Assembly (NCBI GenBank): GCA_039654915.1
Contig: CM077593.1
Span: 79,712,501-79,776,500, forward strand
Reading direction: 5' to 3'
DNA from: Aquilaria yunnanensis
Lineage: Eukaryota; Streptophyta; Magnoliopsida; Malvales; Thymelaeaceae
Length of the DNA stretch: 64,000 nt
This document shows, piece after piece, positions 503-59,352 of the stretch. Position numbers and translations under genes: made by a program. The notes under the pieces were generated by a model, which saw only the letters and a list, made by a program, of their open reading frames with translations, was not told the origin of the DNA and searched no databases. The number at the start of each line of letters is the position of its first letter. Position 1 is the stretch's first letter.

Positions 503-503
503 A

Positions 504-10466: not shown

Positions 10467-10467
10467 A

Positions 10468-11703: not shown

Positions 11704-11834
11704 GATGCTATCCAGCTGTCTTCCACAAGCCTTACAGCTGTCCTAGTTAGTGTGTGTAATAATAGCTTAGTGCGTGTAACAGTGTAATGTCGGATAGTGG
11801 CCTGTCACTTCCGGTCTAGCATTATCAGTTTTAG

Positions 11835-11889: not shown

Positions 11890-12006
11890 GGAGGTCTCAT
11901 GACTCTTGTAAGATATTCTGAATCCGGGAGCTAATATAGAACTCCTTTCTTACTTCTCTCTCTATGATCTCATATTCTCACTAGAAAATTCTGGTTAAAG
12001 GGTGAG

Positions 12007-40304: not shown

Positions 40305-40320
40305 GCTGCCCCCCTTTGCA
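40305..40320 (-). other. Polypurine tract of the Ogre element
   Basis: On the minus strand TGCAAAGGGGGGCAGC directly precedes the 3' LTR: the plus-strand primer site. Confidence 0.85.
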
Positions 40321-40440
40321 TGCCTCATGGGACATGACGCATGCAAAGCCGTTACCAAATTTCGTCCGACGTTAGCTAAGCATTGAGAGCCTTCTCACCA
40401 CCTAAACCTTGAGGAGAAAGACTTTTTTCTCCTCCTTTTT

Positions 40441-40830
40441 GAGGTTAAGGAACTTTCCTTATTACCTCTACGACAGGAACCCTCCTATCGTCTAAGAAAA
40501 TCAAAGGAGAAAAACTCTTTCCTCCTTATTTACCAAGTCTAGAAACTTTCCTAGACTTTTCGCAATATGAACTCTCATATTGCTTACAATCTTAAGAAGA
40601 AAAACTTTTTTCTTCTTTGTGAGGTTAAGGAACCTTCCATAGTACCTCTACGATAAGAACCTTCCTATCGTTTAAAAAAACTAAGGAGAAAAACTCTTTC
40701 CTCCTTATTTATCAAGTCTAGAAACTTTCCTAAACTTTTCGCAATATGAACTCTCATATTGCTTCCAATCTTAAGAAGAAAAACTTTTTTCTTCTTTGTG
40801 AGGTTAAGGAAACTTCCTTAGTATCTCAAG
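40441..40830. repeat. 180-bp tandem repeats in the Ogre 3' untranslated region
   Basis: Units start with gaggttaagg at 40441, 40621 and 40800: two full units and a partial third. Ogre elements are known to contain tandem repeats near the 3' LTR, sometimes as the source of satellites. Confidence 0.85.
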
Positions 40831-41385
40831 CAAAAATTTTTACGAAGGCAATCAAACTTGGAATAGTTTCTTCGGAAGTGTGAATTTTCATAATAGGTGA
40901 GTGCAAAAATTTGAAATTCCGTGAAATAAGTGAATCTTGAAAGTAAGAAATTCCATAAAATGGTAATAAAGCTGACAAATTATGCAAGGGAATGGATGTT
41001 TGGAATCAATATCCAAGTTTCATCTAATATTTTCTTTAGAAAATATAGATTTTCTTGTGAGATATGTCATCCAAATAGGGTTGAAGCTTAGCTACCCCAA
41101 AATGTTATGACTAGCATACCTAATAGGATGCGTCTCAAGAGCAGAATTGCTCCTTACTCGGCCACTCTAAACTAAGAGCTTTGTCCAATGGTTTTAATAT
41201 CAGCATGAAAAAAAAAACTATCCTAAACGATGAAGAAGAAAGAAGAAATTCCCTGAATTGAAAATAAAAAAAAAAACTGGAAAGAAAAAAAATGCTAATA
41301 ATAAAACTAAATGACAAGATAAACGGATTCACAAGTCCGATTGCTTTTTCTTCCACAATGCTTCAACAAGTAGGGTAAAGGACAT

Positions 41386-42015
41386 TTATGGGATGGAACT
41401 AGTCGGGAAAGACTGTCGTGTCCAGTCTATCTGAATCACTGCTGGATCTGGTTCAGGAACAAAAGCTTGCATTTTGTCTAGCAATTCTTCAACAGTTGAT
41501 GCGGACATTACGGTTCATCGTGCCGCCTTTGAGATAAATTTTTTCTGCACAGCGTGATCCATAAAAGATATTAGACCTGCAAAGAAATTGTTAGCATTCA
41601 ACAGCCCAATGGATTTCTTGTGCAAATTAAGTTGGGCCATGGAAGCAATTTGGAAAATTTCTCCTAATGTGCCAAAACCTCCTGGTAGAGCAATAAAAAC
41701 ATCAGAATTACAAAGCATTTGTAACAAACGCTCTTGCAAATTTTTAACCACTAATTCTTCTTCAATCGTGCCCCCATAAATCAATTTCAAAGGTGCATGG
41801 ATAATACCCAAAACTTGGCTTCCTCCTAGAGATGCTGCTGATGCTACACCTCCCATTAATCCGACACTACCTCCCCCATAAACTAAATGTATTTTTCGCT
41901 CAGCTAGTACTTTACCCAAATGGTTGGCTGCCTTCAAATACTCTTCATCTTTTCCAGAAAAAACCCCACAAAATACACAAATACTTCGAGATTTACGAGT
42001 TGAGGTTTTCTTCAT
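41386..42015 (-). pseudogene. LOG-like cytokinin phosphoribohydrolase, intronless, one in-frame stop
   Basis: From ATG at 42015 to TAA at 41386 the frame is exactly 210 codons, the usual LOG length, broken only by TGA at codon 167 (41515-41517). LOG enzymes release active cytokinin bases from riboside 5'-monophosphates. Visible features: SICVFCG Rossmann start, VYGGGSVGLMGG (residues 45-56), the PGGxGTxxE signature as PGGFGTLGE (111-119), and an Arg at 96 aligned with the catalytic Arg of LOGs. After the stop the frame keeps LOG-like sequence (SASTVEELLDKMQAFVPEPDP). Plant LOG genes normally have several introns; none is present, which suggests capture from RNA. Similarity to plant LOGs is clear but distant. 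If translated to the stop it would lack the last helices. Confidence 0.85.
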
Positions 42016-42056
42016 TTCTATCCTTAACCTTGTGAGAAATGAAAAGAAGAGCATGC

Positions 42057-42063
42057 ATTTATA
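42057..42063 (-). promoter_or_regulatory. TATA box upstream of the LOG-like ORF
   Basis: TATAAAT on the minus strand, 42 bases before the ATG at 42015. A very short leader is implied. Confidence 0.45.
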
Positions 42064-42084
42064 GAGATGAAATGATAATGCAAT

Positions 42085-42284
42085 AATTACATTTACAAAA
42101 GTAGGTACATTATTGTTAGAAGAAAAAGAAATTTTTCAAAAATGACAGCTAACATGTAAAGTAGTTGTGACTGTGGCTCATGTCAATTACATTTACAGGA
42201 GTAGGTACATTATTGTCAGAAGAAAAGGAAAATTTTCAAAAATGACAGTTAGCATGTACAGTAGTTGTGACTGTGGCTCACATC
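42085..42284. repeat. 100-bp tandem boxes between LOG and NABP-like 1, third copy at 43021
   Basis: aattacatttaca(a/g)(a/g)agtaggtac...gactgtggctca occurs at 42085-42184 and 42185-42284, and again diverged at about 43021-43120 upstream of NABP-like 1. The boxes always lie between the stop codon of one ORF and the TATA box of the next. Confidence 0.85.
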
Positions 42285-42323
42285 TTCCACTGGTTTTACG
42301 TCTAGTAACGGCTTCAACGTCTT

Positions 42324-42872
42324 CTATGAGTCAGGGATTTGCTTCCCATCTAGTTTTCTTATAAGCTGGCAAACAGGGTCATTTAAAGTCAGATTCCCAA
42401 GGCTGTAACGGTCTCGTTCTTTATGGAAAGTCCTCCATAAACCGATAATTTCACGTTGCATTATTCCACAAGAATGTGTTTCAAGAGTCAATCGGATATC
42501 ATCCAAAGATTCCTTACGCAAGTCATTGTTAATGAATTTGCTTTTATCTTCACGATTTTTGGAGGTCATCCCTAAAGAATGACATTTAGTATCACAATTC
42601 CATCGTCCATACTTGTGACAGACACCTACCCTCTTTACTCTTCGCTTTTTAGCATAAGCGCTTTTACCTAAGCCAGGTATGCGGGGCCTAAATGCATCTG
42701 AAACTTTACCAGCCAAACGGACCTTAGCTTCAATTAACCACCGCGCATTGTCAGGAATGTCTTTGTGCATAAAAACTCTGATTCTTTCACATCTAGCTTG
42801 GTAAATTATTTTAAGAACATTTATTGGGAGGGAAGGAAAGTATTTTCGCAGGGCAGAAAGAGTAGAATCCAT
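42324..42872 (-). CDS. Cysteine-rich NABP-like protein 1 (flexivirus-like)
   Basis: An intact 182-residue frame starting at ATG 42872. The N-terminal part has LRKYFPSLPINVLKIIY and NARWLIEAKVRLAG. A central basic run GKSAYAKKRRVKR precedes a cysteine cluster (CHKYGRWNCDTKC), then LRKESLDDIRLTLETH. A small helical N-part, an Arg/Lys patch and a zinc-finger-like cluster form the layout of nucleic-acid-binding proteins of Betaflexiviridae and Alphaflexiviridae (carla-, viti-, allexivirus), which bind RNA/DNA and can weaken silencing or act in the nucleus. I see the resemblance by eye only. One presumptive zinc-ligand Cys has become Tyr (CHKY). A second, broken copy lies upstream in the transcription sense. 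Confidence 0.6.
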   Translation of the reverse strand: MDSTLSALRKYFPSLPINVLKIIYQARCERIRVFMHKDIPDNARWLIEAKVRLAGKVSDAFRPRIPGLGKSAYAKKRRVKRVGVCHKYGRWNCDTKCHSLGMTSKNREDKSKFINNDLRKESLDDIRLTLETHSCGIMQREIIGLWRTFHKERDRYSLGNLTLNDPVCQLIRKLDGKQIPDS

Positions 42873-42990
42873 TGATGAGAGAAAAATTTGAGAGAAAAGA
42901 GGAAGAAATCAGTTATTGTAGGAAACTGAAATAACCGACTTGAGAGTCACGGAGTACCGTATCCGCTACTTAATCGGAAAGAAGAACACG

Positions 42991-42998
42991 TATTTATA
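42991..42998 (-). promoter_or_regulatory. TATA box upstream of NABP-like 1
   Basis: TATAAATA on the minus strand, about 120 bases before the ATG at 42872. The leader between contains gagagtcacggagtaccgta, also found upstream of NABP-like 2 (about 43780-43800). Confidence 0.5.
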
Positions 42999-43158
42999 GC
43001 GATGAAAGGATAACATGTTGATTATGCTTATAGGAGTAAGTATATTATTGTCAAAAGAAAAAGCAAATTTTCAAATATGACAAATTGTATGTACAGTAAT
43101 TGTGACTGTGGCTCACATCTTCTACTGGTTCTACGTCCAGTAACGGCTTCAACGCCTT

Positions 43159-43706
43159 CTATGAGTCGGGGATTTGCTTCCCATCTAGTTTTCTTACAAA
43201 CTGGCAAACAGGGTCTTTTAAAGTCAGATTTTCGGGACTATAACGCTCTCGTTCTTCGTGAAAAATACTCCATAAACCAAGAAATTTGCATTGCACTGAT
43301 CCACAAAAACGTGTCTCAAGAGTCAATCGGATATTATCCAAAGAATCCTTACTCAAGCCATTCTTGATGAATTGTATTTTATCTTCTCGATTATCAGAGA
43401 CCATTCCTAAAGAACGACATTTAGTATCATAAGTCCATCGACCACATTTGTGACAGACTTGTAACCTTTTCGCTCTTCACTTTTTGGCATAAGAGCTTTT
43501 GCCTAGGCCAAGCATGTAAGACACAAATGCATTTAGGACTTCACCTGCCAGACGGACTTAGTTTCAATTAACCACCGTACATCTTCAGGGATTCCTTTGT
43601 ACATCAAAACTCTTAATCGTTCACACCGAACTTTGTAAATCCTTTTAAGAACATTCATTGGGAGGGAAGGAAAGTATTTTCACAGGGCAAAAAGAGTAGA
43701 ATCCAT
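43159..43706 (-). pseudogene. NABP-like 2, broken tandem copy
   Basis: A paralogue of the ORF at 42324-42872, displaced by 835 bp, beginning MDSTLFAL at 43706. It has an early in-frame TGA at codon 9 where copy 1 has CGA, and at least one frameshift near the middle. The C-terminal 81 codons (43404-43159) are open and close to copy 1 (DSLDNIRLTLET, VRKLDGKQIPDS). Its cysteine cluster is readable in one frame and has lost a different Cys than copy 1 (also to Tyr). Confidence 0.7.
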
Positions 43707-45282
43707 TTTTTTAGAAGGAAATAAAAGAAAGAAGGGAGAAAGAAATCAGTTATTATGGGCAACTGAGACAACCGACTTGAGAGTCACGGAGTACCGTATC
43801 CGCCACTTAACCGAAAAAGTGGATCCTACTTTTTGACAATTTTCAAAGGCTTTGCATGTGCGTCTCTAAATAAAAAGGGCCAGAAAAATTCAGACTGTAA
43901 AATCTTTTCAACTGTTTTCTTTGAAAAAAAATGCCCTTTGTATTTTTCAAAAAAAAAGAAAATTCAATGACACTTTTTTTTTTTAACCTCATTTTCAGGT
44001 ATGCATTTCATAAATATTTGGCTAGGATAGTATTTGAAAAGATAAGGATTAACCAAGTAAATTTTTTCTCACATCGTATAGATGTTTCTTATCTTTGATA
44101 CTCCATTGACCTGGCATTCATCCCGTCATTATGGGTGCAACGTCAATTATTGAATCCGTTGCCAGCTTTTGACAAATTGTCAATGACAATATTTTCTATG
44201 TCTACCTTATCCTTGACCATAATGTCGAATTCTTGACATAATTTGATCCAGCTTATCAACTGTGCATCAAGTGGTAGACTGGAATGGGTTGATGAAGCTG
44301 AAGTCTCGGCTTGTACTTATCAATGTTCTAATCGTGTCGTGGACATGTCTTCTGTTTGATCCCTGTTATGCAAAAGTTATGCATGCATAATGTGAAATGC
44401 ATGAATGTAGTGCATGTGTAACTGATGGCTCTCCTTTGTTTTCATTATTTGTTTATCTCAATTTCTTTGTGTCTATGTTTTACTATGTTCCCTGTTTGAT
44501 TGCATGGATCTAGTTCTTCTTGTCTTTGCTTTGCTGGGTTTTTCTTGTGATTGCCTTCTCGGACTATCATTGAATCTCTTTATGCTTCTCAGCATCAATT
44601 TTTTCAAAAGCCCTTCAAATAAATTTTCTTGACTTGTTCTTGAATTTTGGTCTTAACTTCCTTAACATTCGCCCGCCTCATACTTTATGTCTCTTTGGAT
44701 ACTCGTCCCTGTTGTTGGGTTTACAAAACCTTCGTGAGTATGCTTCCTTCTTTTTGATATAATCATATTCCTATTTTCAATTGTAAGACTTTTGAAGCGA
44801 TCATCCAGGCAACCACCAAGGCAATCACCCCAAGATTTGTTACTGATTTTTTTCCTGTTAGCAAATGTTTTGTGCCGTTCGCAAAGCAGGACCTCAATCT
44901 TACCTGTTTTAATTCATAAAGCTTATCAAAGTAATTTATGGTCTTTGCTTTTTCTGAGTTTTAATTATTACTACCCTTTCTACAAAGTCACAATTTATTG
45001 CACACTAGAGGCCAGCAAGAATGTGAGATTTGAAGAAAAAGAGCTAGAGAGAATTGGCTTTTCATTTATGGGTAAGGGAATATAAAAGTTGAATGTGAGA
45101 TTTGAAGAAAAAGAGCTAGAGAGAATTGACTTTTCATTTATGAGTAAGGGAATATAAAAGTCTTGGGTATAGATGAAGAACAATGAAGGTCTGAGAGAAG
45201 AACGTTTTTTTTTACAACTTTAATCGAACAAGCTCTGGCAATCCTGTATCCACTTCTTCCCTTCTATCTGAAAACTTCATCA
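43707..45282. other. Ogre spacer between integrase and the extra genes
   Basis: No supported ORF. It contains a tandem duplication with a 72-bp period (45019-45090 and 45091-45162). 43770-43820 repeats the leader of NABP-like 1. Confidence 0.5.
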
Positions 45283-46445
45283 TCATGCAAAGTACTTCTT
45301 CACTGAATCTGAATTTACTGGTTTTGGTAGCTCTCGTCCATCGATTTCTGTCAGAATTAGGGCGCCTCCTGAAAAGGCTTTCTTCACTAGATATGGTCCA
45401 TCATAGTTTGGTGTCCATTTCCCTCTAAAATCATGCTGAATGGGTAGAATTTTCTTGAGCACTATGTCACCTTTATGACACTGTCGTGGGTGAACCTTCT
45501 TATTGTAAGCACGGATCATCCTCCTTTGATAAAGTTGCCCATGGCAAAGGGCAATCATTCTTCTCTCATCGATTAGGTTCAATTACTCATATCTAGCTCT
45601 GACCCATTCCGCTTCTTCCAATTGGGTATCCATTAGTACCCTCAATGAAGGGATTTCAACTTCAATGGGTAATACATCCTCCATACCATATACCAGAGAA
45701 AAAGGTGTTGCTCCAGTAGAAGTACGAATAGAAGTTCTGTAAGCATGTAGTGCGAAAGGTAACATCTTATGCTAGTCCTTGTAAGTAACAATCATCTTTT
45801 CAATAATCCTCTTGATATTTTTATTGGCCGCCTCCACTGCACCATTCATCATTAGTTGATAAGGTGTTGAATTGTGATGTTTGATCTTGAACTGTCGGTA
45901 CAAAGTCTGCATCATTTCATTATTCAAGTTTGTGGCATTGTCTGAAATGATACGCTCTAGCAGCCCATACCGACAAATGATTTCTTTCTTGATGAACCGG
46001 CATATCACCTTTTGAGTTACACTTGCATAAGACACAGCCTCTACCCATTTAGTGAAGTAGTCAATTGCCACTAGAATGAATTTATGACCATTAGAAGCCT
46101 TGGGGGTAATTGCTCCAATGACATCTATCCCCCACATAGCGAAAGGCCAAGGTATTGCTGTCACATTAAGAGGAGCAGGTGGAACCTGGATCTTGTTGGC
46201 ATATATTGGCACTTATGAAATTTTCTTACGTGATTGATACAATCATTTTCTAATGTGAGCCAATAGTAGCCCGCCCTCATTATTTGTCTTGCCATGGTAT
46301 GACCACTAGTGTGTGCTCTACACATTCCAGCATGAACTTCTTCCATGATCTTTCGTGCTTCATGAGCATCTACACAGCGAAGTAGCATCGAATCTGGGGT
46401 TTTCTTATAAAGTGTGTCTATGTTCAAAAGGAAACCCATTGACAA
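45283..46445 (-). pseudogene. Integrase of the Ogre element, with stops
   Basis: The zinc-binding region includes HAGMCRAHTSGH and CINHVRKFHKCQ, where one zinc Cys is replaced by Phe. The core has WGIDVIGAI, ISDNATNLNNEMM and GAVEAANKNIK, giving the DDE triad of retroviral integrases. The C-terminal part ([38 protein letters not shown]) is typical of Ogre. In-frame stops near 45772 and 45583 and a frame change at about 46180 split it. Confidence 0.88.
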
Positions 46446-46728
46446 CCTTCGTAAAATCTTTTTTTCATTTTCTGATGCTTCTAATGGATATACTCATTCT
46501 TGGAGGTATTTCTTGATATCATAATACCAAGGTTTTCAGTCCAATTCCTCCTCCACACTCATGCAATAAGCTGGGGAATCTAGTACTTTCATTTCGAAAG
46601 CAGGTGTATGCTCAGGTTTGCTTATCTTGTACATGGCAGTTAAAGTAGCTAAGGCATCCGGAATTTGATTATCTTCCCTTGAAAGATGATGGAAGCTTAT
46701 ACTTTTGAACTTTCCTGCCAAGTCTAGT
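46446..46728 (-). pseudogene. RNase H C-terminal remnant joined to protease
   Basis: LAGKFKSISFHHLSREDNQI and PDALATLTAMY match the end of an Ogre RNase H domain. Upstream the sequence switches, near 46728, to the protease C-terminal region; the whole RT and most of RNase H are missing. KPWYYDIKKYLQ and ILRRLSMGFLLN lead on to integrase, with two stops. Confidence 0.8.
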
Positions 46729-47505
46729 ATGAGTCTTTAGTAAGGAACCGATCCCTATCGGCAGCTCTATTTCTCCAACAACATCTCTTCTCGTCCCGTC
46801 AAATGGTCGAACGATGATATGACTGTTGTTGAGGTATAATGGGTCTATACCAAGCTTATATAAGGTTTCAAGTGGCATTACATTTAGAACTGACACATTG
46901 TCAATAAGGACTCTAGCCATAATTTGATCTTTGTACTTAGTCGAAATATATAGAGCCTTAGAGTGACCTCTTCCTGCTGCTGGTATCTCATCGTTAGTGA
47001 ACGTGATGAGATTCTGTGCCGTGATGTTGTTGATGAGGTGGTCAAAATTATTTACAGAAATATCTTGCTCAACATAGGCCTTGTTCAAGACTTTAAGGAG
47101 GGTTTCTCGATGAGCATCAAAACTTAAAAGTAGTGAGAGTATGGAAATCTTTGCTGGCAGGCAGTTTAACTGCTGCACGATACTATACTTACTTTGCTTT
47201 ATGAGTTTGATAAACTCGCCAGCTTGTTCATCTGTTACCACTTGAGGCACCCCTTGCTCTTCTGATGTATTTGTGCTAATAGGCCCGTTTGTTGGGTCTG
47301 TGATATTCTTATCTTGTTGGAGCCTGTCCATCTGTTCTGGCGAATAACATCGACCACTTCTAGTCATGCTCCTAACCTCTAACGGAGTTGATGTAATGTT
47401 GGAGGTGTAATCATACTTCCATGGAACAACTTTATCTAATTTGTAGGGGAATGGAGTTGGGACTTGAATCCTTAAAGGCTTGACAGTAGGTTTTGAAATT
47501 GGTAT
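46729..47505 (-). pseudogene. Gag-protease part of the Ogre element, distal to the nested insertion
   Basis: The frame is open from 47505 (PISKPTVKPLRIQVPTPFPY) through MTRSGRCYSPEQ to the protease motif VLIDNVSVLNVMP; the canonical Gly of the D-x-G-S active site is Val. It continues the gag frame interrupted by the element at 47506-57629. Confidence 0.82.
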
Positions 47506-48364
47506 TGATGCCCGGCGGCATCATTTTCGGAAGACATTGTGACTCCGGGAGGGACTTCCTGAGGGGGAGAACGTCTGCAGCTCGAATTTCCCAGGGGAGT
47601 GTGCCTGAAAATACTCAGAAAAGAGGGTTAGGAGGTCCCCGGGGTGTTTTCCCGGGGAGGAGCCTCTGACGCCCTAATCAATGTCCTAAGAGGTGAAAGA
47701 GGGGGAGCACTAGAAAGTTTAGTGGCCTTGCCTGTTTGTGTTTTCTCAAGATGGAGGAGTCGAACCGTTTGCCAGGGTCTGTTCCCTGGTATTTATAAGA
47801 GTGCCCAGCCCGTTCAGATGATGACACGTGTTCGGTCGGATGTTCTCTGAGTTTCTGGGCGTAGGGGACAAGTAGCCGGTGGCAGGCTCCTTGAGCCTTG
47901 AACCGAGACAGGTCGTGACAAGACCTGGACGGTGTCGGCGTGTCAGACCGCCATTTGGGGCGGCATGTAACGTCTGTGGGCGACATGTCAGAGGCTCCTT
48001 AAATGCTCATGCCGTACTCCCGAAGTCCTCTGGGCGAGGTCGTCCTTTGGTATGGATGCCCTTCTTCGAGAGTTATGCTCGTAGTTCGGGGAGTCCTTTA
48101 GTTCGGTGGTTCTACCTTCGGAGGATTCTCTCCTGCTTGTAAGGGCTAGGCCTCTGTCCCGAAGACGATCCGTTTGGTCCCCCGAATGAGCTGGCCATAC
48201 CTTTGGATTTCCTGGCGTATTAGCCGAAGTCCTGACTTCGTGGTGCTCGACTTCGCTCCTGCCGAGGTCAATGACAGTGCTTCTTTTCGAGCTATGCCAG
48301 GCTTCTCGAACACAACTTCGGCGGGAAGTACGTACTGGGAGAGGCGAAAGCCCTTTGGCTATCA
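47506..48364 (-). repeat. 3' LTR of the nested element
   Basis: On the minus strand TGATAGCC...GGCATCA. The polypurine tract CTTTTTCGAGGGGGGCCTG (48365-48383) abuts it. Gene-like GC-rich frames inside are LTR sequence. Confidence 0.92.
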
Positions 48365-48939
48365 CAGGCCCCCCTCGAAAAAGCCGAAGTGGAAACTTCG
48401 GTTTGTCAGCTTTCGAAGGGCGCCTCGTTGGGCCTTGGGTGTAATACCTGTGCCGAAGACAGACCTTTTGTTTGAAGACGTAGGTTGTTCGACCACAGCC
48501 TGTCCTTTGGTGTCTTCGAGGTAACCTACTTTTTTCCTTTTTGCAGGTCTTTATGACGTCGCGTCTCGTAACCAGACGTGTCAGTCTAAAGTGGTGCGCC
48601 CAAGATTTAGGGGTGTCAGAAAGCGTGTCCCTCTTTTGGCGTGATTGCTGATACGTGGCACGTTTGTCATTGGCGAGGGCTGCAGCGGATACAACATGCG
48701 CGTCTTTTCACGCGTAGTAATCAGTTACGGCGACTGTTCGCCTTCGTGGGGTACTTATGACGCCGGTTCGCCTACCCCCCTCAGCCTATATTTACTATTG
48801 TTCCTTCATAACCTCCTTTTGCTTCTGCTTTTGCTCTCTTCTGCCTTTCAACTGTTTTTGCATTTTCTCCTGCTTTTCGCGGCGGTGCTATTAACAGAGT
48901 TTTTTCCGGTCACCTTTCATGACGGCATCTTCAAACCCA

Positions 48940-51467
48940 GATTTTGTTAAAGCATTTGGTGGGTTTTAACTTCCCAAAGTTTTCTGTTTTTCAAGCTTTT
49001 TTCCTGAAGTCATTTTTGCCTTTTTCCGAACTCGTTTTTCAGCCGACATGCCTATTCCTGAAAGTTGGCAACCTCTTTTGTCTTACCCTTGCTGCACCAC
49101 TCCTAAGAAATTAGCAAGATGGAAGACTAAATTTTTTCTTCCTTCGTATGCCATTACAAGGTTGCCACGTTCTGACCAATTTAGTTTTTCGAATCGTAGT
49201 AATGAGGTTACCGTTTTCCGAGCCCAACTGAAGGCCAGACTTCGGTACCCTCCTCCGAAGATGATTTGCGACTTCTGCCAATTCCATGGCATTGCCGTAA
49301 ATCAACTTCCGTCGAACTCGTACTGCTATTTTAACGCCTTCCTCTGTATGTGTGGCGTCTTCAAAATAGAACCCCACTTCATTATCTTTATGCAGTACTA
49401 TAAGCTCTTCGTGGTCCCGAAGGGTGGCTTTTACTTTATGCTACCTCGGGGATCAGGGAGCAAAAAGTATATGTTCATTTTTGCCACTAAGGACAGCTAG
49501 CGAGGGTGGCAACAAAAGTTTTTCTTTCTGAAGATGGAGAAGGGCTGGTCGCATGTTCCGACCAAGTGGGCTCGGGGAAGGCTGGAGATGGACGTCGTAG
49601 ATCCGAGGATAATGCTGACTCCCGGGTTGGCTCCCATATTCGCGGACTTCAACAGACGTATCCGAGCCGTCTCCGACTGGGATTCCGAGGTCCCTTTGTG
49701 CTCTCTCTACCCCTTCCCCATCAATTGGAGGCTGATGATCGAGGAGGTTCTTCGGGAGCTAGGGGTAGTGAAGGAGCACAAGACGGACTTTGGGATGCCG
49801 GCTCCTGCCATCGCTGGGAAAGACTCCTGGCTGGTGCAACTCCTTCGGGAGGAAGTTACTTACGAAACTTTTTATGAGCGTAAGTTATCTTCGAGTCCCT
49901 TTGTTATAATTTCATCTTGGACTCACACTGATGTCTTCTTTCTTTCCAGAGATGGGCGACGACACTGCTGCCTTCTACAAATCCCTTTTCCTCGGTCAAT
50001 CCGAGAAAGGTGAGCAGACGAAGAAGGCCGTCTCCCGAAGGCGGAAAGCGACTGGGGCTGGGCCTTCTTCTAAACGGGCGAAGAAGACTTTCCACCTCCT
50101 CAGCCGGAAGTTCTTGAAGAGGTAAGCGGAGAGCCCAAAGCTGCCGCCGCTCCACCGCCCGAAGTTGCTGCCGACGTCCCTCCGACAGACGTCCCTTCTC
50201 GGAGTCCTACTTTGTCGCAGGCTCTTTTGGATGCCTTGGTAGAGGCCGCTTCTGCCGAGGAGCGGCGCAAGAGCAAAGGCAAGGGGATTTCTACCGAGGA
50301 GGTTTTGGATTCTAACGATGATGTGGCCGAAGTGCCACCAGGTTCGCTTTCTAGCGAACTGTGATGCCTTCACTTTTTTTGAATTTTGAGATTTACTTGC
50401 CTTGACCAGTTTTTTATTTTACCGTGAAGGGGAGTTACAATTTCCGGGTTGGGCAGACGAGCATGCCCGGAAGCGAGCCCTTCGGGATGCCCGTATCCCG
50501 AAGGGGAAGATCCCGAAGGAGCCTTTCTGGTCGTTTACGGAGGACATGAATTTGTACTCCGAAGACTGCCAGCAAATGGCCAAAGAGATCTCGAAAGGGA
50601 TCCTTACCGAGGCCTCCTTCAGGGCAATTGTGGAGGCTCACCCGGGCGACGACTCCCTCTCCGCGAAAGTTTCCGAGCACGCTGCCCAGGTATGCTTCGC
50701 GCCTTTCTTTTTCCTTTTGATTTCTTCTAAGTACTTGGCTCTCATTTTTGCCTTACTGACTTTACCTTTATTTCTTTGCAGCTGCTGGGGTACGCTGGTT
50801 TCCTCAGAGTTCGGGTGGCGAGGCAGGCGGCATTCCGATTCTCGGCCTTAGAAGTCATAGAAAAAACTAATGCCACGTGCTCGGAATTGGCTGCCAAGAA
50901 CACACAGCTGGCTCAAGCTGCAGAGAAGGAAGTTGCTGCCGTTCGGGAGGAGTTCCTAAAAGAAAAAGAGGAACTTTTGAAAGACTCATCCCAGAAAATT
51001 TCTAACCTCGGCTCCCAGGTGGCGGAGCTGATCTCGGCGAACGAGGAGCATCAAAAGGAGAATTCAGAGGCTGAGGTTCTCCTGGCGAAGGCGCTTGCTG
51101 AGAAGGCTGCGCTCCAAGCCGAGGTTGATTCTTTGAAGAAAGAGCCGAAAAAGAAGAAGATGAATGCACTGAAGAAGGAGGTCGCAGATCTGAAGAAGGA
51201 CCTTGAGGACCTTGGGGTCGAGAAGGATAAATCCGACCAGATGACCAAGGTTGGTTTCCAGGACGGGTTTTGCCTCGCTCGGCACCAAGTTCTTTAGAGG
51301 TTCCCAGATCTGGACCTCTCTTTCTTGGAGGCCCTAAACATTCCCGAGGGGCCTCAGTGGTCTTGGTACAAGATTGAGCACCTGAACGTGCCTTCTTCTT
51401 TCCCGGCGCCAAAGGTGGTGGAAAAGGATGCAGGAGCTGGTGGCTCCCGGGACGCCGAGATTCCTTA
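48940..51467 (+). pseudogene. Antisense additional ORF of the nested Tat element
   Basis: This runs opposite to pol, between integrase and the 3' LTR, where several Tat elements carry an antisense extra ORF. Pieces: 49048-49500 (MICDFCQFHGIAVNQL, YYKLFVVPKGGFYF), resembling the N-terminal domain of proteins annotated as putative gypsy-type transposon (PF04195); 49534-50013 (MLTPGLAPIFADFNRRI); 50402-50690; and 50776-51297, a long coiled coil rich in Glu, Lys, Ala and Leu. Splice-like gtaagttatc and ttctttgcag junctions suggest introns. A stop at 49498-49500 and frame changes suggest decay, although some breaks may be introns. Function is unknown. Confidence 0.6.
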
Positions 51468-51792
51468 GTTTGTTCTAGGGTCCTTTGCCTTCTTTTCTTT
51501 CTTTTTTGTACTTCTTCCTTTGGCACTCCTTTTTCTCTGTAAGCAAATTCATTTTAAGAAAGACTTTTCTTTTTAGAAAATTTGGCTTAAGTCTTTTTGC
51601 GAGATTTTTCATTTCCCATTGTCCCGAACACGTTCGCTCAAGAGACTTCGGAAAATCATATCTGCGCTCATTTCGACGATCACCTTCGCGGAATTCTGAC
51701 TTGTGTAATTTATGCTTAGGAACTTTTCTGAGAAACTTTTGTACTTAGAATATTTTTTCTAATTTGTACAATGCCATTTTCTCATCGAAATC

Positions 51793-54700
51793 CTAAGCAT
51801 AGAACTTTTTCAAGGCGTCTGAATGCCAAGTATTTTTCAATTCTACGCCTTCGGGATCGCCTAGCTTGTACACCCCTTTTCGCACTTCGGCAAGTACCAG
51901 GTAAGGTCCTTCCCAATTTGCGCGAAGTACCCCGTGGGATGGCCTTCGGGGTGCAAATTCAGCCTTTCGGAGAACGAGGTCTCCTTTCTTGATTCCCTTT
52001 GGCCTGACCCGTATGTTTATGGCCCCAGCCACTCTTTGCTGAAAAGCTTTTCTTCTCAGCTCAGCTATTTCTCTGTGTTCGCTAACGAGGTCGAGCTTGG
52101 TCCTCATGCCGAGGTCATTTCCCTTTTCACCAAACACTTGCACTCGTACTGATGGTCGTACTACCTCGATTGGGATGATAGCCTCTGTACCGAAAACAAT
52201 TGAAAAAGGTGTCTCCCTTGTGGCTCTTCGGGGTGTTGTTCGGTAACCCCATAACACGCTTTGGAGCTCTCCTGGCCATTTCCCTTTTGCTTCCCCCAGT
52301 CTCTTTTTTAGACCATCATTTATGGTCCTATTAGATACTTCTACCTGCCCATTACTTTGGGGGTGAGCTACTGGGGCGAAGTGCATTTTTGTTCCGAGGT
52401 CACTGATAAATTCCTAGAATCCATTGTCTATAAACTGGGACCCATTATCAGCTACTAATACCCTTGGTATGCCGAATCTGCATACAATGTTCTTCCATAC
52501 GAACTTCTGCACTTCTTTTGCCGAGATAGTCGCTAGGGGTTCTGCCTCGACCCATTTGGAGAAATAGTCTACTACTACCACGCAGAACTTTACGCCTACA
52601 GGCACTGTTGGGAGCGGCCCAATGAGGTCTATGCCCCAGACTGCGAAGGGCCAGGGATAGTTAGCCGAAGTTACCAATTTCGAGGGTGTCCTCTGGATAT
52701 TCGCGTGCCTTTGGCAATTACCGCATTTCTGGACGAACTGCCTAGCGTCCTTTCTCAGGGTAGGCCAAAAGTATCCTTGGCGAAGTATTACTGCTGCCAG
52801 GGCGTCGGTTCCGATGTGCGAACCACAAGCGCCTTCGTGTACTTCTTCGAGGATCATTTCAGTATCTTCTTCGCCAACACACCTCTGTAGTGGATTTGCA
52901 TATCCCTGCCGATATAATTCTTCGCCAATTAGGAAGAATCGACAGGAGCGTCTTTGCACTTTTGCAGCTTCGCTGGGGTCTTCAGGGAGCGTATTGTCTG
53001 CGATATATCTTTTTATCGGGTCTTTCCAGCCTTTTCCCGAAGTTGCCATGCTCAGCACTGTGATGCTCGGGTGGTTTAGCACCTCGGTGCATGTTTTTGA
53101 TTTTGCCAAGCAATCTGCCTCGGTATTATCTCGTCGAGGTACGTTTTCGATTCGTACAGTGTCGAACTCCCGGATGAGTTTTGCTACCAATTCATGGTAT
53201 TTTGCCAAGGTTGGGTCCTTTGCCCCGTAGTCTCCTGCCGTTTGCCGAACTACCAACTGGGAATCGCTGTGGGCTTTCAAGTTTCTTATGCCAATTTTTC
53301 TGGCTAGACGTAATCCTGCTATGAGGGCTTCATACTCAGCCATATTGTTGGTGACGTTAAAGCCAAACTTGATAGCCTTCATTACTTCTAGGCCTTCGGG
53401 ACCTCTAATAATTACCCCAGCTCCCTGGTGTTCGAACCCTGAGGCTCCGTCAACATTCAAAGTCCATTCGGGCTCACCTTCACCAGGATCCGGATGGCTA
53501 TCCTCGGTGGTGGGTACTTCGGCGATGAAGTCTGCCAGTGCTTGAGCTTTTATGGCTTTCCGAGGTTTATAAGTGATGTCGTGTTCGCCAAGCTCTATAC
53601 ACCACTTGGAAAGCCTTCCCGAATGATCAACGTTCCTCATGACATCCCATAGTGGTAGACTAGTTCGGACGATGATAGGGTGAGCCTGAAAGTATGGTCG
53701 TAGCCTTCTTCCTGCTAGTACCAAAGCAAATATAGCTTTCTGCAGCAAGGGATACCTAACTTCGGCACCGTGTAGGGACTTGCTTACATAATAGACCGGC
53801 CATTGCTTCGGCCCCTCTTCTTTCACAAGGACCGAGCTCACAGCTTTTTCTGTGACGGTGAGGTATAACACGAGGGGCTCTCCCTCACGAGGTTGTCGCA
53901 GAGTGGGCAGACTAGCTAAGTAGATTTTGAGTTCTTCCCAGACCTTTTGGCAATCTTCATTCCAAGGATGATCATCATTTCCAAGGTTGTTCTCCTTTTC
54001 TGTTACCTTAGCGAAGACTTTGAAGAACGCTCGACACCGGTCTCCATATCTGGAAATAAACCTACTAAGAGAGGTTATCCTTCCAGTGAGTCTCTGCATA
54101 TCTTTTATTGTGACGGGAGTTCGGAATTTGAGTAGAGCCTTAATTTTTTCTGGGTTAGCATTAATGCCTTTTTTTGATACCATGTACCCAAGAAACTTTC
54201 CCGAGGTCACTCCGAAGATACACTTTTCGGGATTAAGGTAGATCCCAAAGGTTCTGAGCTGGTGGAAAGTTTCCTTTAGATCCGCGACGTGGTCAATAGG
54301 CAACTTGCTCTTAACTATCATGTCGTCGACATAGACTTCCATATTTCTCCCTATTTGATCGCTAAAGACCTTGCTCATCAACCTCTGGTAGGTGGCTCCT
54401 GCATTTTTTAGGCCGAAGGGCATCCTGACGTAACAGTACGTTCCCCCCTCGGTGATGAAGGAGGTTTTATCTTCATCTTCGGGGTCCATCCTTATTTGAT
54501 GATACCCACTGAAGGCGTCTAGGAAACTTAGGAGCCCGTATTCAGCAGTTGAGTCTACCAATTGGTCTATCGGTGGGAAAGGGTATGAGTCTTTAGGGCA
54601 AGAATCGTTCAAGTTCCTGAAGTCGATGCACATTCGGAGCTTACTGCTTCCTTCTTTTGTGGCAATTACCACGTTGCTTAACCATTCGGGGTATTTCACC

Positions 54701-54933
54701 TCCCTGACGACACCAGCGTCTAACAAGCGTTGGACTTCAATTTTGACAAAGTTACTTTTATGGACCGAGATGCTCCGTTTCTTTTGCCGGACAGGTTTTG
54801 CCTCCGGACTTACTTTAAGGCTATGCTGTATTACGCCAGGGTTTACCCCTGGCATATCTTTCGGCGAGTAGGCAAATAGATCTTTATTTATCAGCAGAAA
54901 AGATATGAGTTTTTTCTTGTCACATTCGGCCAA
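51793..54933 (-). pseudogene. RT, RNase H and integrase of the nested element
   Basis: One frame of 1047 codons, broken only by TAG at 52414-52416. RT: CIDFRNLNDSCPKDSYPFP, MPFGLKNAGATYQ, YVDD (54322-54333). The second domain is RNase H of the type gained by the Tat lineage (LNVDGASGFEHQGAGVI, NNMAEYEALIAGL, HSDSQLVV, NTEADCLAK). Integrase: HEGACGSHIG..CGNCQRH zinc site, WGIDLIGPLP, VADNGSQF, GQVEVSNRTI. The stop lies in the integrase core just after the second Asp. The C-terminal part reads PKGIKKGDLVLRK and WEGPYLVLAE. Confidence 0.92.
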
Positions 54934-55658
54934 GTTTTTCCTTATTTGTGTATTTTGGCCTGGGACAAGTTCCCTATTCGCATTTGCTGCTCGGATGGCC
55001 CTACCCCGAAGGTAGGCAAGGTGACAGGCTTGAGGTCGCCACTTGATATGCCCAAGCTCGGCAGCAAATGCGAAAACAGGACGTCGGCATTTGATTCATC
55101 GTCAAGTAACACTCTCTTTATGTCCCAGTTTCCTATCCTTGCCATGACCAACAGTGGGTCATCATGGGGAAATATGACGGCGGAACCATCCTTTCGGGCC
55201 AGCTTCTTCGTTGGACTCTGATATTCCATGACTGCTATTTCTCTGGCCTTCCTCTTTCTTTCTGATGATTGAAGTCCCGTCGTGATTGTTTGTATTATCC
55301 CTGCCAGAGGTGGAGGACGCCTCTTTGGACTTCGGTTCCTCCTTCTGTCGGAGTCGTAATCCTTGTCATCTGTCTTTCCCTTCTCCTCTTTTCTCCCTTT
55401 CGGGGAAGGCATTCGCAGATAACGCCGAAGTTGACCCAGTTTGATCAGTGACTCTATGTACTTCTTCAGTTGGAAGCAGTCTTCGGTGTCGTGGCCGTGG
55501 TCGCGGTGGAACTGGCAAAACTTCTTTCTGTTCTTTTTGTTATCAGCGGTCATGGCCCTTGGCCACTGAATTTGGGTCCCCTGTCTTTCCATTGTCATGA
55601 GGATATTGGTCATTGTGGTGTTCAGGGGTGTGAAGGTTGGGAGTTTCCTTCCCCGCAT
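54934..55658 (-). pseudogene. Gag zinc knuckle and protease of the nested element
   Basis: CQFHRDHGHDTEDC (55476-55517) is the gag knuckle. A basic linker follows, then a protease region LLDDESNADVLF, where the usual D-x-G-S site is altered. It ends out of frame with the RT ORF. The protein also lacks the usual long protease-RT linker, so both a deletion and a frameshift lie near 54940-54990. Confidence 0.82.
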
Positions 55659-56802
55659 CCTCCGAGGCCGTCCTGCCTGTTCGGCTGGATATCGGCTTTG
55701 CTGGGCGGGTCCTTCGGCCCGGTTGTGATCGGACTTCGGCCCCCCATTCTCAGCTATTCGGCCATCATGTGCTGTTCGGCCCTTCGGTAGAACTCGCCAA
55801 GTGTGTTCGGAGGGTCTTTGGAGAATTCGTAAAATAGCTGTGAATCCTTCTAAAGGCCCCGTGTCATCGCGAGGATGCGTATTTTGGGCCGAAAGTCTGG
55901 GACACTCAAAGCTTCTCTATTAAACCTTTTGACATAGTCGCGGATGGTTTCTCCACTTCTTTGCGCTATGTCGAACATCTGGACGGGCATCTTCGCCGTC
56001 GGCCGACTTCCAATGAATTGTTGTGTAAAGGCCGTAGATAACTCCTAAAACTCTGTGATGGTTCCTGGAGCTAATGAATTGTACCAGGCTGTTTCTGTAC
56101 CTCGGAAGTCACCTGGCATGGCTGCTTCAACTACAGCTCGGGTGATGGGGTCTCATCCCTACAAAAGGTCCCAGATAGCCTGGCCCAGACGGGCTTACGG
56201 GCTACCTGTTTTTCCACCCTGTCCAACCTCGCCAGTATCCTCTCCAAAAGAAGCGTGACGCTAGGCTCTTCCTCCTGGTGCTTGTAGGCTTCGTTGCAAG
56301 GAGATTGCTTGTGCCTCTTCGGGGAGTGACTTCGACGCCGAGGGGATAGAGACTTCGCCTCGGGTGATGAGTTCCTTTGGTATGGGACTTTAGGTCGCTT
56401 AGACTCCGTTTGTCCCGCAAGTCGTACCCCGAGGGGCGTGTTTTCTGTCGAAGACTCTTCATGGGGGTCCCCACTCCCCGAATTGCGGTAGGTTGCCTTG
56501 GGGCTTTTCTCCCGAGGGCGTACTGGTGAGGGAGGCCTTCGGTCTATCTGTTGGGTCATTTCAGCCACAACAGACCGTTGAAAGTCGTGCAGAAAACTCA
56601 TGGTGATGACAAGAGGATGCTCCTCCTCCGGCAAAGAAGTCCCTGGAATGGTTTGCTCAATAGCTGGTTGAACTTCAGGTGCGGACGGGGACCTCGGGAG
56701 TCCCTTGTCCTTGGAACGCCGAGTCTCAATGACGGCGACTTGAGGGTGGGTTCCCACAGACGGCGCCAAATGATGCCCGGCGGCATCATTTTCGGAAGAC
56801 AT
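55659..56802 (-). pseudogene. Gag N-terminal part of the nested element
   Basis: The start ATG at 56802 lies 32 bases inside the 5' LTR (MSSENDAAGHHLAPS). The first 223 codons (56802-56131) are open: Ser/Pro/Arg-rich, with LLLERILARLDRVEKQV. After the stop, the gag core continues in fragments (AMPGDFRGTETAWYNSL, GETIRDYVKRFNREAL, DPPNTLGEFYRRAEQ) with several stops and an apparent internal deletion of the usual region before the WYNSL motif. Confidence 0.75.
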
Positions 56803-57629
56803 TGTGACTCCGGGAAGGACTTCCTGAGGGGGAGAACATCTGCAGCTCGAATTTCCCAGGGGAGTGTGCCTGAAAATACTCAGAAAAGAGGGTTAGGAGG
56901 TCCCCGGGGTATTTTCCCGGGGAGGAGCCTCCGACGCCCTAGTCAATGTCCTGAGAGGTGAAAGAGGGGGAGCACTAGGAAGTTTAGTGGCCTTGCCTGT
57001 TTGTGTTTTCTCAAGATGGAGGAGTCGAACCGTTTGCCATGGTCTGTTCCCTGGTATTTATAGGAGTGCCCAGCCCGTTCAGATGATGACATTTGTTCAG
57101 TCGAATGTTCTCTGAGTTTCTGGGCGTAGGGGACAAGTAGCCGGTGGCAGGCTCCTTGAGCCTTGAACCGAGACAGGTCGTGACAAGACCTAGACGGCGT
57201 CGGCGTGTCAGACCGCCGTTTAGGGCAGCATGTAACGTCTGTGGGCGACATGTCAGAGGCTCCTTAAATGCTCATGCCGTACTCCCAAAGTCCTCTGGGT
57301 GAGGTCGTCCTTTGGTATGGATGCCCTTCTTCGGGAGTTATGCTCGTAGTTCGGGGAGTCCTTTAGTTCGGTGGTTCTGCCTTCGGAGGATTCTCTCCTG
57401 CTTGTAAGGGCTAGGCCTCTGTCCTGAAGATGATCCGTTTGGTCCCCCGAAGGAGCCGGTCATACCTTTGGATTTCCTGGCGTATTAGCCGAAGTCCTAA
57501 CTTCGTGGTGCTCGACTTCGCTCCTGCCGAGGTCAATGACAGTGCTTCTTTTCGAGCTATGCCAGGCTTCCCGAACACAACTTCGGCGGAAAGTACGTAC
57601 TGGGAGAGGCGAAAGCCCTTCGGCTATCA
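56771..57629 (-). repeat. 5' LTR of the nested element, with primer site next to it
   Basis: 859 bp, ending GGCATCA on the minus strand, followed by TTTGGCGCCGTCTGTGGGAA (56751-56770), the primer-site region common in Tat/Athila-type elements. Confidence 0.9.
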
Positions 57630-59352
57630 GGTATGACTAGTGGTCTTGGCATAGCATTAACTTCTCTCTTTTTAATGATTAGATTTGCATCAACATCTTT
57701 ATCTGACATAAAAATGCTGAGTTGGGATGAGTCTATGAGTCTTTGTAGATTCTCACGGAATTCTTAGCATTCCTGGATGGAATGACCCTTACTGTCATGA
57801 AAATCACACCATTCTTCATCTTTGATTTCTTTGTGTCCAAGAGAAGGCTTTCCAATGATGACCCTTTCTTTCACAAGCCATGAGTATAATGCTTAAGAGG
57901 GGTTGTAATGTCACTGACTGACTTCTTTATCAGTCGGTGTTCCTCTATCATATTAACTGGCCTAGTTTGATGAGGCGGCAATGGGTTGTGAGTGACGTTC
58001 GGTTCATCGGAAAAGTCCAACCACTTTGACTCGATTAATTGTTGGACTATGAGTTTCAAAGCTACGCAATTTTCTAGACCATGGCTCACAACGCCATCAT
58101 GATATGGGCAAGTTATGTTGGGGCCGTACCACCTTGGATATGGGGCTTTCATTGGCTTTGTAGGAATTGGGCGGATAAGTTGACTTTCAATGAGCTTTGG
58201 ATATAACTCAGTGTAAGTCATAGGAATTGGCGCAAAAATTTCTCTTTGTCTTTGTGTGGGCATTGGAGGGGTCGGAACAGGTGGCCGTAATTGATTAGGC
58301 TTGTTGGGAGGATAATTATTGGGCCTATTGGTAGGATAAGATAGGCGAGGCCCAGTAGCCACAGTACCTACGAGGGGAATCCCTCTTCCGCGTCCTATTT
58401 GTTGTACTTCCTCATCTTTTCTTCTGGACGGTTCTCCTCTTTTCATGGCATCATTAAAGGATTCGGTGATCTTCCTGGTCCTAATCCCATGCTCAATTCT
58501 TTCTCCAGACATGACAATGTCTGAGAAATTGGTTGCCGAATTGCCAATAAGTTTGTCGTAGTATGGGTATTTCAGTGTCTGGACAAATAAAGTTACCATT
58601 TCTCTCTCCATCATGGGTGGCTGGACTTGTGTGGCTAAGTCCCTCCATCTTTGAGCGTACTCCTTGAAGATTTCTTGCTTTTTCTTTTCCATATTCTGGA
58701 GAGTTTGGCGATCCGGGGCCAAGTCCATAATATGTTTGTAGTTGTTGATGAACGCCTGAGCGAGGTCATTCCATGTTTTGATGTTTCTTGGACCTTGACT
58801 TAGATACCATTGTAGTGCTGACTTTGTAAGACTTTCTTGAAAAAGTGATATCCACACCTTCTCGTCTTTTGTGAGTGGTTGTATTTTTCTTAGAAATAGT
58901 GTAATATGAGTGATGGGGTAACTTGTTCCATCGTATTTCACAAAGTCTGGCACCTTAAAGTTTGAGGGAATCACAACATCTGGCACCAAGCAGAGATCAT
59001 CTACCGAGAGAGATCCAAATACAGTGCCTCCTTCAATGGGCCAAAGCCTCTTCTCTATTGTCTCGAGCTTTTGAGATTCTCCTTCTTCCTTCAATAGTGT
59101 CTTCTTCTCTTCATAGGCAGTATTTTGTTTCAGGTGAATGCTAGTGGACGGACTTGATTCCTGAGAAAGATTTTCCTGAATTGAGATCCGTTGCGAGGTG
59201 AATCCCGGGGGATAAATGGGATCTTGTGGCTCTTTAATAGGGATTTGGGTTGCCTTTCCCTTGATTAACTCCATTAATTATTTCATTTGCTCGGCCATGC
59301 TTTCTATCTTGGACTCAATATCGGTGAGACGTCCTTCCATTTTCTCTGCCAT
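57630..59352 (-). pseudogene. Gag of the Ogre element
   Basis: ATG at 59352 (MAEKMEGRLTDIESKIESMA), TAA at codon 25, then an open frame of 467 codons from 59274. Typical Ogre gag: VPDFVKYDGTSYPITH, ALQWYLSQ, FVQTLKYPYYDKLIG, and a late PRWYGPNITCPYHDGVVSHG. A frameshift near 57880 is followed in another frame by a second knuckle-like segment (CDFHDSKGHSIQEC), and the coding sequence runs on to MPRPLVI at the nested insertion. Confidence 0.85.

What the first reader, a model, noticed from the sequence alone, without database searches (positions are those of the whole stretch)
40305..45282. Ogre-type retrotransposon carrying a LOG enzyme plus virus-like cysteine-rich proteins
Seen: between integrase and the polypurine tract of a minus-strand Ogre/Tat element lie three sense-oriented small ORFs, LOG-like and two NABP-like. 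Known: Ogre elements may have extra ORFs, and LOG activates cytokinins; I know of no LTR retrotransposon that carries LOG or flexivirus-type NABP genes. Inference: a module that could manipulate cytokinin status and nucleic-acid-based defence in cells where the element is active. Alternatively, it may be a passenger piece of a virus-derived or host-derived insertion.
Basis: partly seen in the sequence, partly recalled or inferred. Interest (0 to 1): 0.88.

Follow-up and report, generated by a model that had tools for sequence, protein, structure and literature searches.

The report
Giant retrotransposon carrying virus-like accessory genes
A very abundant plant jumping gene carries, in a fixed place, a row of two to four copies of a plant-virus-like zinc-finger gene followed by a cytokinin-enzyme-like gene, most with their own promoter-like signals, which suggests that the element may weaken its host's silencing defence and alter a growth hormone in the cells where it is active.

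Summary
In a minus-strand Ogre-like (Ty3/gypsy, Tat-type) element, a LOG-like gene and two tandem genes for a betaflexivirus-type zinc-finger protein (NABP) lie between integrase and the polypurine tract. The window copy is damaged: RT/RNase H missing, LOG stopped at codon 167, one NABP broken. The cassette is no accident: 150 of 150 scored matches in this 842-Mb genome (8,667 first-look candidates); 2-4 NABP genes followed by LOG in 12 of 12 sampled 8-kb loci; TATAAAT upstream of 27 of 30 NABP and 6 of 6 LOG starts tested; omega medians 0.30-0.50 for NABP and 0.17-0.38 for LOG. One young insertion (LTRs 99.4-99.8% identical, TSD ACATG) lacks RT/IN but has four open NABPs and an open LOG. NABP relatives occur in four eudicot orders. 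LOG in such elements was already reported (PMC9289625); I found no report of the NABP genes in the searches made. Best reading: element-borne accessory genes, NABP acting like a viral silencing suppressor/activator and LOG on cytokinin. Anatomy is shown; function is inferred.

The parts
61703..62600 (-). 5' LTR remnant of the Ogre-like element (its 5' part is replaced or missing)
   Evidence: 93.8% identical to 37813-38697 over 900 columns
60224..60943 (-). ORF1 upstream of gag, DUF7745
   Evidence: PF24924 E 4.3e-35
57874..59277 (-). gag
   Evidence: Retrotrans_gag E 3e-10
47506..57629 (-). younger nested Tat/Retand-like element (lineage name by recall), not part of the cassette; LTRs 47506-48364 and 56771-57629, TSD GGTAT at 47501-47505 and 57630-57634
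   Evidence: LTRs 96.4% identical; flanks read; RT, RNase H domains, IN
46672..47520 (-). protease-region ORF; its last ~25 residues match the end of RNase H in relatives, so RT/RNase H are deleted near 46743 in this copy
45283..46493 (-). integrase: H2C2, core and C-terminal parts in broken frames
   Evidence: PF17921 E 2.2e-5 (just under cut-off), PF00665 E 3.5e-10; the C-terminal part matches at 83-94% in the 8 of 12 sampled loci that have integrase
43159..43706 (-). first NABP gene of the array, degenerate
   Evidence: (in L001, which is the window)
42992..42998 (-). TATAAAT box of the second NABP gene
42324..42872 (-). second NABP gene, open, 182 aa; second zinc-ligand Cys (residue 88) is Tyr in this copy
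42057..42063 (-). TATAAAT box of the LOG gene
41386..42015 (-). LOG-like gene, intron-less frame of 209 codons with one premature stop at codon 167
   Evidence: PF03641 E 1.1e-24; nearest solved chains are Arabidopsis LOG-type proteins; frame
40309..40317 (-). polypurine tract
   Evidence: same tract directly before the LTR in L031 and L034 and L041; with one change in L032 and L045
37757..40304 (-). 3' LTR, TGTTGACAC...GCCACA, 2548 bp

Best explanation
This is an accessory gene cassette that belongs to a high-copy Ogre-like LTR retrotransposon. Between integrase and the polypurine tract stand two to four tandem genes for a 182-aa zinc-finger protein related to betaflexivirus NABPs, then one intron-less LOG gene; most have a TATA-like box of their own. 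Proposed mechanism: when the element is transcribed, the internal promoters give separate NABP and LOG mRNAs. NABP binds nucleic acid and weakens small-RNA silencing, and/or activates transcription in the nucleus, as carlavirus p12 does. LOG releases active cytokinin from its riboside monophosphate in the same cell, favouring division of meristematic cells that can pass new copies to progeny. SHOWN: anatomy, order, copy number, TATA boxes, selective constraint, family relationships, recent insertion of an element with the cassette open. INFERRED: expression from the TATA boxes, silencing suppression, cytokinin release, benefit to the element.
For: Multicopy: 150 of 150 scored matches, from 8,667 first-look candidates; 83 of the 150 show no in-frame stop by my hand count; some places lie in the same element. 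Fixed order: at least two NABP matches in 36 of 36 loci (some only partial) and LOG in 35 of 36; in the other (L024) the fetched stretch ends soon after the third NABP. IN-NABP(2-3)-LOG in 8 of 12 sampled loci; the other 4 have the cassette but no RT/IN in the stretches fetched. Boundaries: polypurine tract and LTR start directly downstream. Insertions with both LTRs and TSDs ACATG and GTCGT. Promoter-like boxes: TATAAAT in 27 of 30 NABP and 6 of 6 LOG upstream regions, letter-shuffled means 1.40 and 0.36; 5 of 35 NABP and 5 of 11 LOG frames without the start were left out. Constraint: omega medians 0.30-0.50 for NABP and 0.17-0.38 for LOG; in all NABP frames together, sites varying in two or more copies favour codon position 3 (68/64/104), singletons do not (21/28/23). 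Virus homology; of 21 BFVD hits, 15 are named betaflexivirus proteins, including all 14 named ones in the top 16, and 9 are named RNA silencing suppressor (virus families by recall). Breadth: Populus, Rhamnella, Xanthoceras, Acer, Orobanche (orders by recall). NABP and LOG in one gene model in P0092 and P0116 (P0116). A carlavirus homologue is a silencing suppressor and transcriptional activator (PMC7588395 abstract). Precedent: insect retrotransposons with viral helicase domains show weak silencing suppression (PMC6338049 passages).
Against: No expression or activity data. BFVD hits are individually weak (best E 0.03, none at 0.001, TM-scores by query length at most 0.27) and the model is modest (pLDDT 71.9, pTM 0.42); three of 21 hits are unrelated viral proteins and three unnamed. 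The element LOG clade has lost the Lys next to the active-site Arg (L or V here, mostly M/L/I elsewhere), so activity or substrate may differ. Single omega pairs reach 1.52. The values come from open frames only; one search includes broken frames with stop codons skipped, and leaves out 2 of 12 first NABP genes and 4 of 12 LOG genes. The singleton control is flat for all NABP together but not for second NABP genes (25/31/40) or LOG (30/16/32). LOG has at least one stop in 8 of 8 sampled copies with integrase. TATA conservation among copies is partly shared ancestry; the first NABP gene in the window has none.
Confidence: 0.6

Rival explanations
1. NABP is chiefly an element-specific transcription activator or anti-silencing factor (in the manner of VANC of VANDAL elements): it binds the repeated TATA/leader module of its own gene array and LTR and reactivates the element, with no general effect on small RNAs.
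For: Gene and promoter-like module are duplicated together in the array; LOG and NABP genes share a related TATA context; carlavirus p12 is also a nuclear transcriptional activator (PMC7588395).
Against: The betaflexivirus relatives are most often named silencing suppressors; no binding-site evidence was collected.
Confidence: 0.2
2. The virus-like genes serve the host: element-borne NABP sequence gives small RNAs or interfering protein against related viruses, and the host tolerates the element for it.
For: This role has been proposed for virus-derived accessory domains of retrotransposons (PMC6338049 passages).
Against: Low omega points to selection on the protein, which siRNA production alone would not need; it does not explain LOG; the element protein is far from the viral ones (25-29% identity for the three best BFVD hits).
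Confidence: 0.07
3. Passenger: a virus-derived and a host-derived cDNA were captured once by an ancestral element and ride along without function.
For: Window copy and many others are broken; LOG frame is continuous over 209 codons, as expected of a captured cDNA.
Against: Omega medians 0.17-0.50, codon-position pattern of shared sites, nearly invariant zinc-finger and basic residues across species, relatives in four eudicot orders, and presence of the cassette in derivatives without RT/IN.
Confidence: 0.1
4. The cassette is a separate insertion (endogenous virus fragment or other mobile unit) that landed inside an Ogre copy.
For: The proteins look viral.
Against: 12 of 12 sampled loci carry it at the same position, next to the element's polypurine tract and LTR, and the target-site duplications flank the LTRs, not the cassette.
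Confidence: 0.01

Closest known systems
Ogre / Tat lineage LTR retrotransposons
   Same: Extra ORF before gag (DUF7745), gag-pro, RT, two RNase H domains, integrase, long LTRs starting TGTTGACAC
   Different: Carries a tandem NABP array plus LOG between integrase and the polypurine tract; 3 to 4 NABP genes in 6 of 12 sampled copies
YgdH/LOG-containing gypsy elements of Citrus and Populus (PMC9289625, section 12 read; the earlier report by Steinbauerova et al. is not held, and I recall its abstract as describing Athila-like elements with LOGL4 similarity)
   Same: LOG-type domain as an extra domain of an LTR retrotransposon
   Different: No NABP genes or private promoters are mentioned in the section read
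Betaflexivirus nucleic-acid-binding proteins (Carla_C4 PF01623, Viral_NABP PF05515), e.g. chrysanthemum virus B p12
   Same: Basic stretch followed by a Cys-rich zinc finger; Pfam and BFVD matches
   Different: 182 aa with extra N- and C-terminal helical parts; encoded by a retrotransposon in tandem copies, not by an RNA virus
Insect LINE and LTR retrotransposons with RNA-virus SF1 helicase domains (PMC6338049, passages read)
   Same: RNA-virus-related accessory part in a retrotransposon; weak silencing suppression was reported for it
   Different: Other protein, fused to the element's polyprotein, insects; here separate genes in an array, with LOG, in plants
Orchid Ty3/gypsy elements with an AlkB-type RNA demethylase (PMC9289625)
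   Same: Tat-like giant element that gained an accessory gene
   Different: Different gene; single additional ORF; found only in two Phalaenopsis species in that screen
VANDAL/VANC anti-silencing systems of Arabidopsis (PMC5735166, PMC10398659; search listing with the start of the abstracts only)
   Same: Transposon-encoded counter-defence, as a functional analogy
   Different: Unrelated protein of a DNA transposon (recalled) that acts on its own sequences

Membership tests
Ogre/Tat LTR retrotransposon | ORF1 upstream of gag | tested here: met
   DUF7745 ORF before gag in the window and in L038
Ogre/Tat LTR retrotransposon | dual RNase H (Tat) | tested here: met
   RT_RNaseH plus RVT_3 in L038:9039-9998
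Ogre/Tat LTR retrotransposon | intron between gag-pro and RT | tested here: inconclusive
   Frames break between 7751 and 7941 in L038; no transcript data
Ogre/Tat LTR retrotransposon | RT falls with Ogre in a tree; tRNA-Arg primer site | not tested
   No reference RT set in hand; the sequence after the 5' LTR was read but not matched to a tRNA
Betaflexivirus-type NABP | match to PF01623/PF05515 | tested here: met
   74 and 71 of 80 members at E<=0.01; the window copy alone is just under the PF01623 cut-off
Betaflexivirus-type NABP | Cys4 zinc finger next to a basic stretch | tested here: met
   C85, C88, C93, C97 and KKRRAK at 90% or more of 80 sequences; window copy lacks C88
Betaflexivirus-type NABP | encoded by a betaflexivirus genome | tested here: not met
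   Encoded inside an LTR retrotransposon, so it is a homologue, not a virus gene
Betaflexivirus-type NABP | silencing suppression | not testable with these tools
   needs an assay
LOG (cytokinin riboside 5'-monophosphate phosphoribohydrolase) | PF03641 and PGGxGTxxE motif (motif name recalled) | tested here: met
   motif columns mostly kept, the final Glu in 11 of 11 own copies and 111 of 115 relatives (115 of the 120 listed relatives used)
LOG (cytokinin riboside 5'-monophosphate phosphoribohydrolase) | active-site Arg (recalled) and the Lys after it | tested here: inconclusive
   Arg in 8 of 10 own copies with a letter and 110 of 115 relatives; Lys replaced by L/V in 10 of 10 own copies, present in 5 of 115 relatives
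LOG (cytokinin riboside 5'-monophosphate phosphoribohydrolase) | enzyme activity | not testable with these tools
   needs an assay

The most novel reading that the evidence does not exclude
A plant retrotransposon lineage maintains a virus-like accessory region: a tandem, separately promoted array of silencing-suppressor genes plus a hormone-activating enzyme, found across eudicot orders. Derivatives without RT and integrase keep the region (LOG open in 3 of 4 sampled, second NABP open in 4 of 4) and have inserted recently, so the family works as a division of labour between enzyme-supplying and counter-defence-supplying copies.
Probability: 0.3. Interest if true: 0.92.

Novelty: new variant of a known kind. 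Interest (0 to 1): 0.8.

Why it matters
A conserved, multicopy plant LTR retrotransposon that encodes relatives of viral silencing suppressors would be direct evidence of active counter-defence by such an element, and would link betaflexiviruses and retrotransposons by gene exchange. The LOG gene adds possible control of a host growth hormone. Undamaged young copies exist, so both ideas can be tested.

Tried and rejected
A separate insertion inside the Ogre-like element was rejected (anatomy of 12 of 12 loci). I first took the end of LOG in the window to be a frameshift; one search shows one in-frame stop at codon 167. A clean division of labour (enzyme copies versus accessory copies) was considered: LOG is open to its end in 3 of 4 copies without RT/IN (L033, L036, L051; L052 has one stop) and in 0 of 8 with integrase. 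But the first NABP gene has a stop in 3 of those 4 copies, all three NABPs are open in L034, which has integrase, and the LOG stops are scattered, with one recurring Arg-to-stop site (residue 10) that looks like independent CpG decay. Age may explain much of the difference, so it is kept only as the novel case. IMG/VR gave 169 pattern matches, none confirmed. PDB sequence search with the NABP profile gave only two chains, at E 0.36 and 0.47. The first AlphaFold model was poor (pLDDT 62.4). Prior reports of NABP in retrotransposons were sought: 11, 59 and 90 held no paper; the others gave listings, from which I opened only PMC9289625, PMC3136472 and PMC6338049. Only open-licence PMC papers are covered. 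The Steinbauerova paper is not held under the DOI I tried. The genome-wide LOG count could not be obtained (tool busy). The species was not identified.
Full report
OBSERVATION. The window is plant DNA: G000:C1:79712501-79776500 of an 842-Mb genome with eight chromosome-sized contigs. On the minus strand lies an Ogre-like element: 5' LTR remnant 61703-62600 (93.8% identical to part of the 3' LTR), ORF1 60943-60224 (DUF7745 E 4.3e-35), gag 59277-57874, protease ORF 47520-46672, integrase 46493-45283, then the reported cassette, the polypurine tract at 40317-40309 and a 3' LTR 40304-37757. A younger Retand-like element (47506-57629; LTRs 96.4% identical; TSD GGTAT) sits inside it. The copy has lost RT and RNase H: about 180 bp separate the PR and IN frames, and the tail of the PR ORF matches the end of RNase H in relatives. 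In the cassette the first NABP gene (43706-43159) is broken, the second (42872-42324) is open with 182 aa but has Tyr for one zinc-ligand Cys, and the LOG frame (42015-41386, 209 codons, no intron) has one stop at codon 167.

ELEMENT-BORNE AND ABUNDANT. NABP against the whole genome gave 8,667 first-look candidates; 150 were scored and 150 matched at 78-100% identity, 83 of them without an in-frame stop by my hand count; some places lie in the same element. Thirty loci with 1.5-kb flanks and six 8-kb loci were searched: at least two NABP matches in 36 of 36 (second matches partial in some), LOG in 35 of 36; in L024 the stretch ends soon after the third NABP (L001 is the window itself and L005 lies inside L031). 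In all, 12 of 20 systematically chosen places were fetched as 8-kb loci. All 12 have 2-4 NABP genes followed by LOG; NABP number is 2 in six, 3 in five, 4 in one. Integrase lies upstream in 8 of 12. In 4 of 12 (L033, L036, L051, L052) gag, or a piece of it, lies upstream but no RT/IN was found at E<=1e-4 in the stretches fetched; for L033 and L036 these reach back to the 5' LTR. The cassette ends at GCAAAGGGGGGCAGC or a one-base variant and TGTTGACAC of the LTR in the window, L031, L032, L034, L041 and L045; in L035 the fetched stretch ended before such a motif.

COMPLETE, RECENT INSERTIONS. The chromosome-5 element (L033) has LTRs 99.77% identical over 1,747 and 99.42% over 2,228 aligned columns, with TSD ACATG. 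The chromosome-8 element (L036) has LTRs 94.7-97.3% identical in three pieces, with TSD GTCGT. With a recalled rate of 1.3e-8 per site and year the first is some 0.17 million years old. It lacks RT/IN, yet all four NABP frames and LOG are open.

GENES. A relative (L038) shows ORF1, gag-pro with G-patch, RT and two RNase H domains. The NABP family: 210 proteins by one sequence, 655 by profile, the best 120 listed each time and mostly 182 aa; named sources are Populus, Rhamnella, Xanthoceras, Acer and Orobanche. 74 of 80 aligned members match Carla_C4 and 71 of 80 Viral_NABP at E<=0.01; C85, C88, C93, C97 and a KKRRAK stretch are at 90% or more. Foldseek of a moderate model of the Populus protein (pLDDT 71.9, pTM 0.42) against BFVD: 21 hits, none at E<=0.001 (best 0.03), TM-scores by query length 0.13-0.27. 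Of the top 16, two are unnamed and 14 are betaflexivirus proteins (families by recall), 9 of these called RNA silencing suppressor; of the last five one more is (grapevine virus B), one is unnamed and three are unrelated. So the fold is not established; the agreement of names is the evidence. Chrysanthemum virus B p12, a carlavirus protein of this kind, suppresses RNA silencing in the cytoplasm and activates transcription in the nucleus (PMC7588395, abstract and passages); the title of a cited paper adds control of cell size and proliferation (reference list only). LOG: 7,457 relatives, best 120 listed; best are an unnamed protein (83%), then Xanthoceras, Reevesia (many loci) and others; nearest solved chains are Arabidopsis LOG-type proteins. 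The active-site Arg and PGGxGTxxE are mostly kept; the Lys after the Arg is hydrophobic in nearly all element-type sequences. NABP and LOG domains are in one gene model in Rhamnella P0092 and Orobanche P0116 (P0116). Equal longest-contig lengths (8,723 for P0005 and P0135; 4,511 for P0012 and P0175) suggest linkage elsewhere (inference).

REGULATION AND SELECTION. TATAAAT occurs within 200 bp upstream of 27 of 30 NABP starts (25 of them at -112 to -129, two at -66) and 6 of 6 LOG starts (at -40 to -48), against means of 1.40 and 0.36 in letter shuffles; 5 of 35 NABP and 5 of 11 LOG frames without the start were left out. Paralogues tend to keep their order: first, second and third genes fall in separate clades, with exceptions such as L033's second gene. 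Pairwise NG86 omega medians in the 12-locus set: first gene 0.33 (10 of 12 sequences), second 0.39 (12), LOG 0.24 (8 of 12); without RT/IN 0.30, 0.32, 0.17 and with integrase 0.42, 0.50, 0.29 (broken frames included, stop codons skipped). In the larger set of open frames: first gene 0.37 (3), second 0.49 (19), third 0.40 (7), LOG 0.38 (11), between gene groups 0.34-0.42; one frame was put in no group; single pairs reach 1.52. Sites varying in two or more copies favour codon position 3 in all NABP (68/64/104), second NABP (33/37/49), third NABP (9/9/25) and LOG (19/15/24). Singletons are flat for all NABP (21/28/23) and third NABP (18/21/22) but not for second NABP (25/31/40) or LOG (30/16/32). 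I read this as constraint during activity with drift after insertion; the control is imperfect.

INTERPRETATION. The anatomy shows that the cassette is part of the element; the constraint suggests that it is useful to it. The likeliest use is counter-defence by NABP (silencing suppression and/or activation of element transcription), with LOG raising local cytokinin so that host cells carrying new copies divide. No step of function was tested.

KNOWN AND NEW. LOG/YgdH in LTR retrotransposons is reported for Citrus and Populus (PMC9289625, section 12 read). Betaflexivirus replicase-like sequence is known in cucumber chromosomes (PMC3136472, passages). NABP genes in a retrotransposon were not found (open PMC papers; mostly listings).

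Noticed in passing
window 1-13260: Tandem and inverted copies, about 99.5-100% identical, of a sequence with a 1,812-aa open frame that by eye looks like an endogenous plant pararetrovirus polyprotein (zinc knuckle, protease, RT, RNase H); a young cluster. Described only.
   Followed up: partly
window 48970-51294: Open frames antisense to the nested Retand-like element; one of three scanned weakly matches Transposase_28 (E 3.8e-4, under its cut-off).
   Followed up: partly
L033, L036, L051, L052: 4 of 12 sampled cassette-bearing elements have no RT/integrase in the fetched stretch; gag pieces in L051/L052 are 49-58% identical to the window's, against 66% for L033's and 83% for L036's element, so more than one such subfamily may exist.
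   Followed up: partly
P0098 (Rhamnella rubrinervis): Gene model joining NABP to a stretch that by eye resembles an Athila-type integrase end; the cassette may also ride in other element lineages. Pfam did not flag that stretch.
   Followed up: partly
window 38632-39069: Six imperfect copies of a 76-bp unit inside the Ogre-like 3' LTR.
   Followed up: no
LOG copies in L006, L007, L008, L015, L031, L049, L053: The same codon (residue 10, Arg in other copies) is a stop in these seven, probably independent CpG deamination.
   Followed up: no
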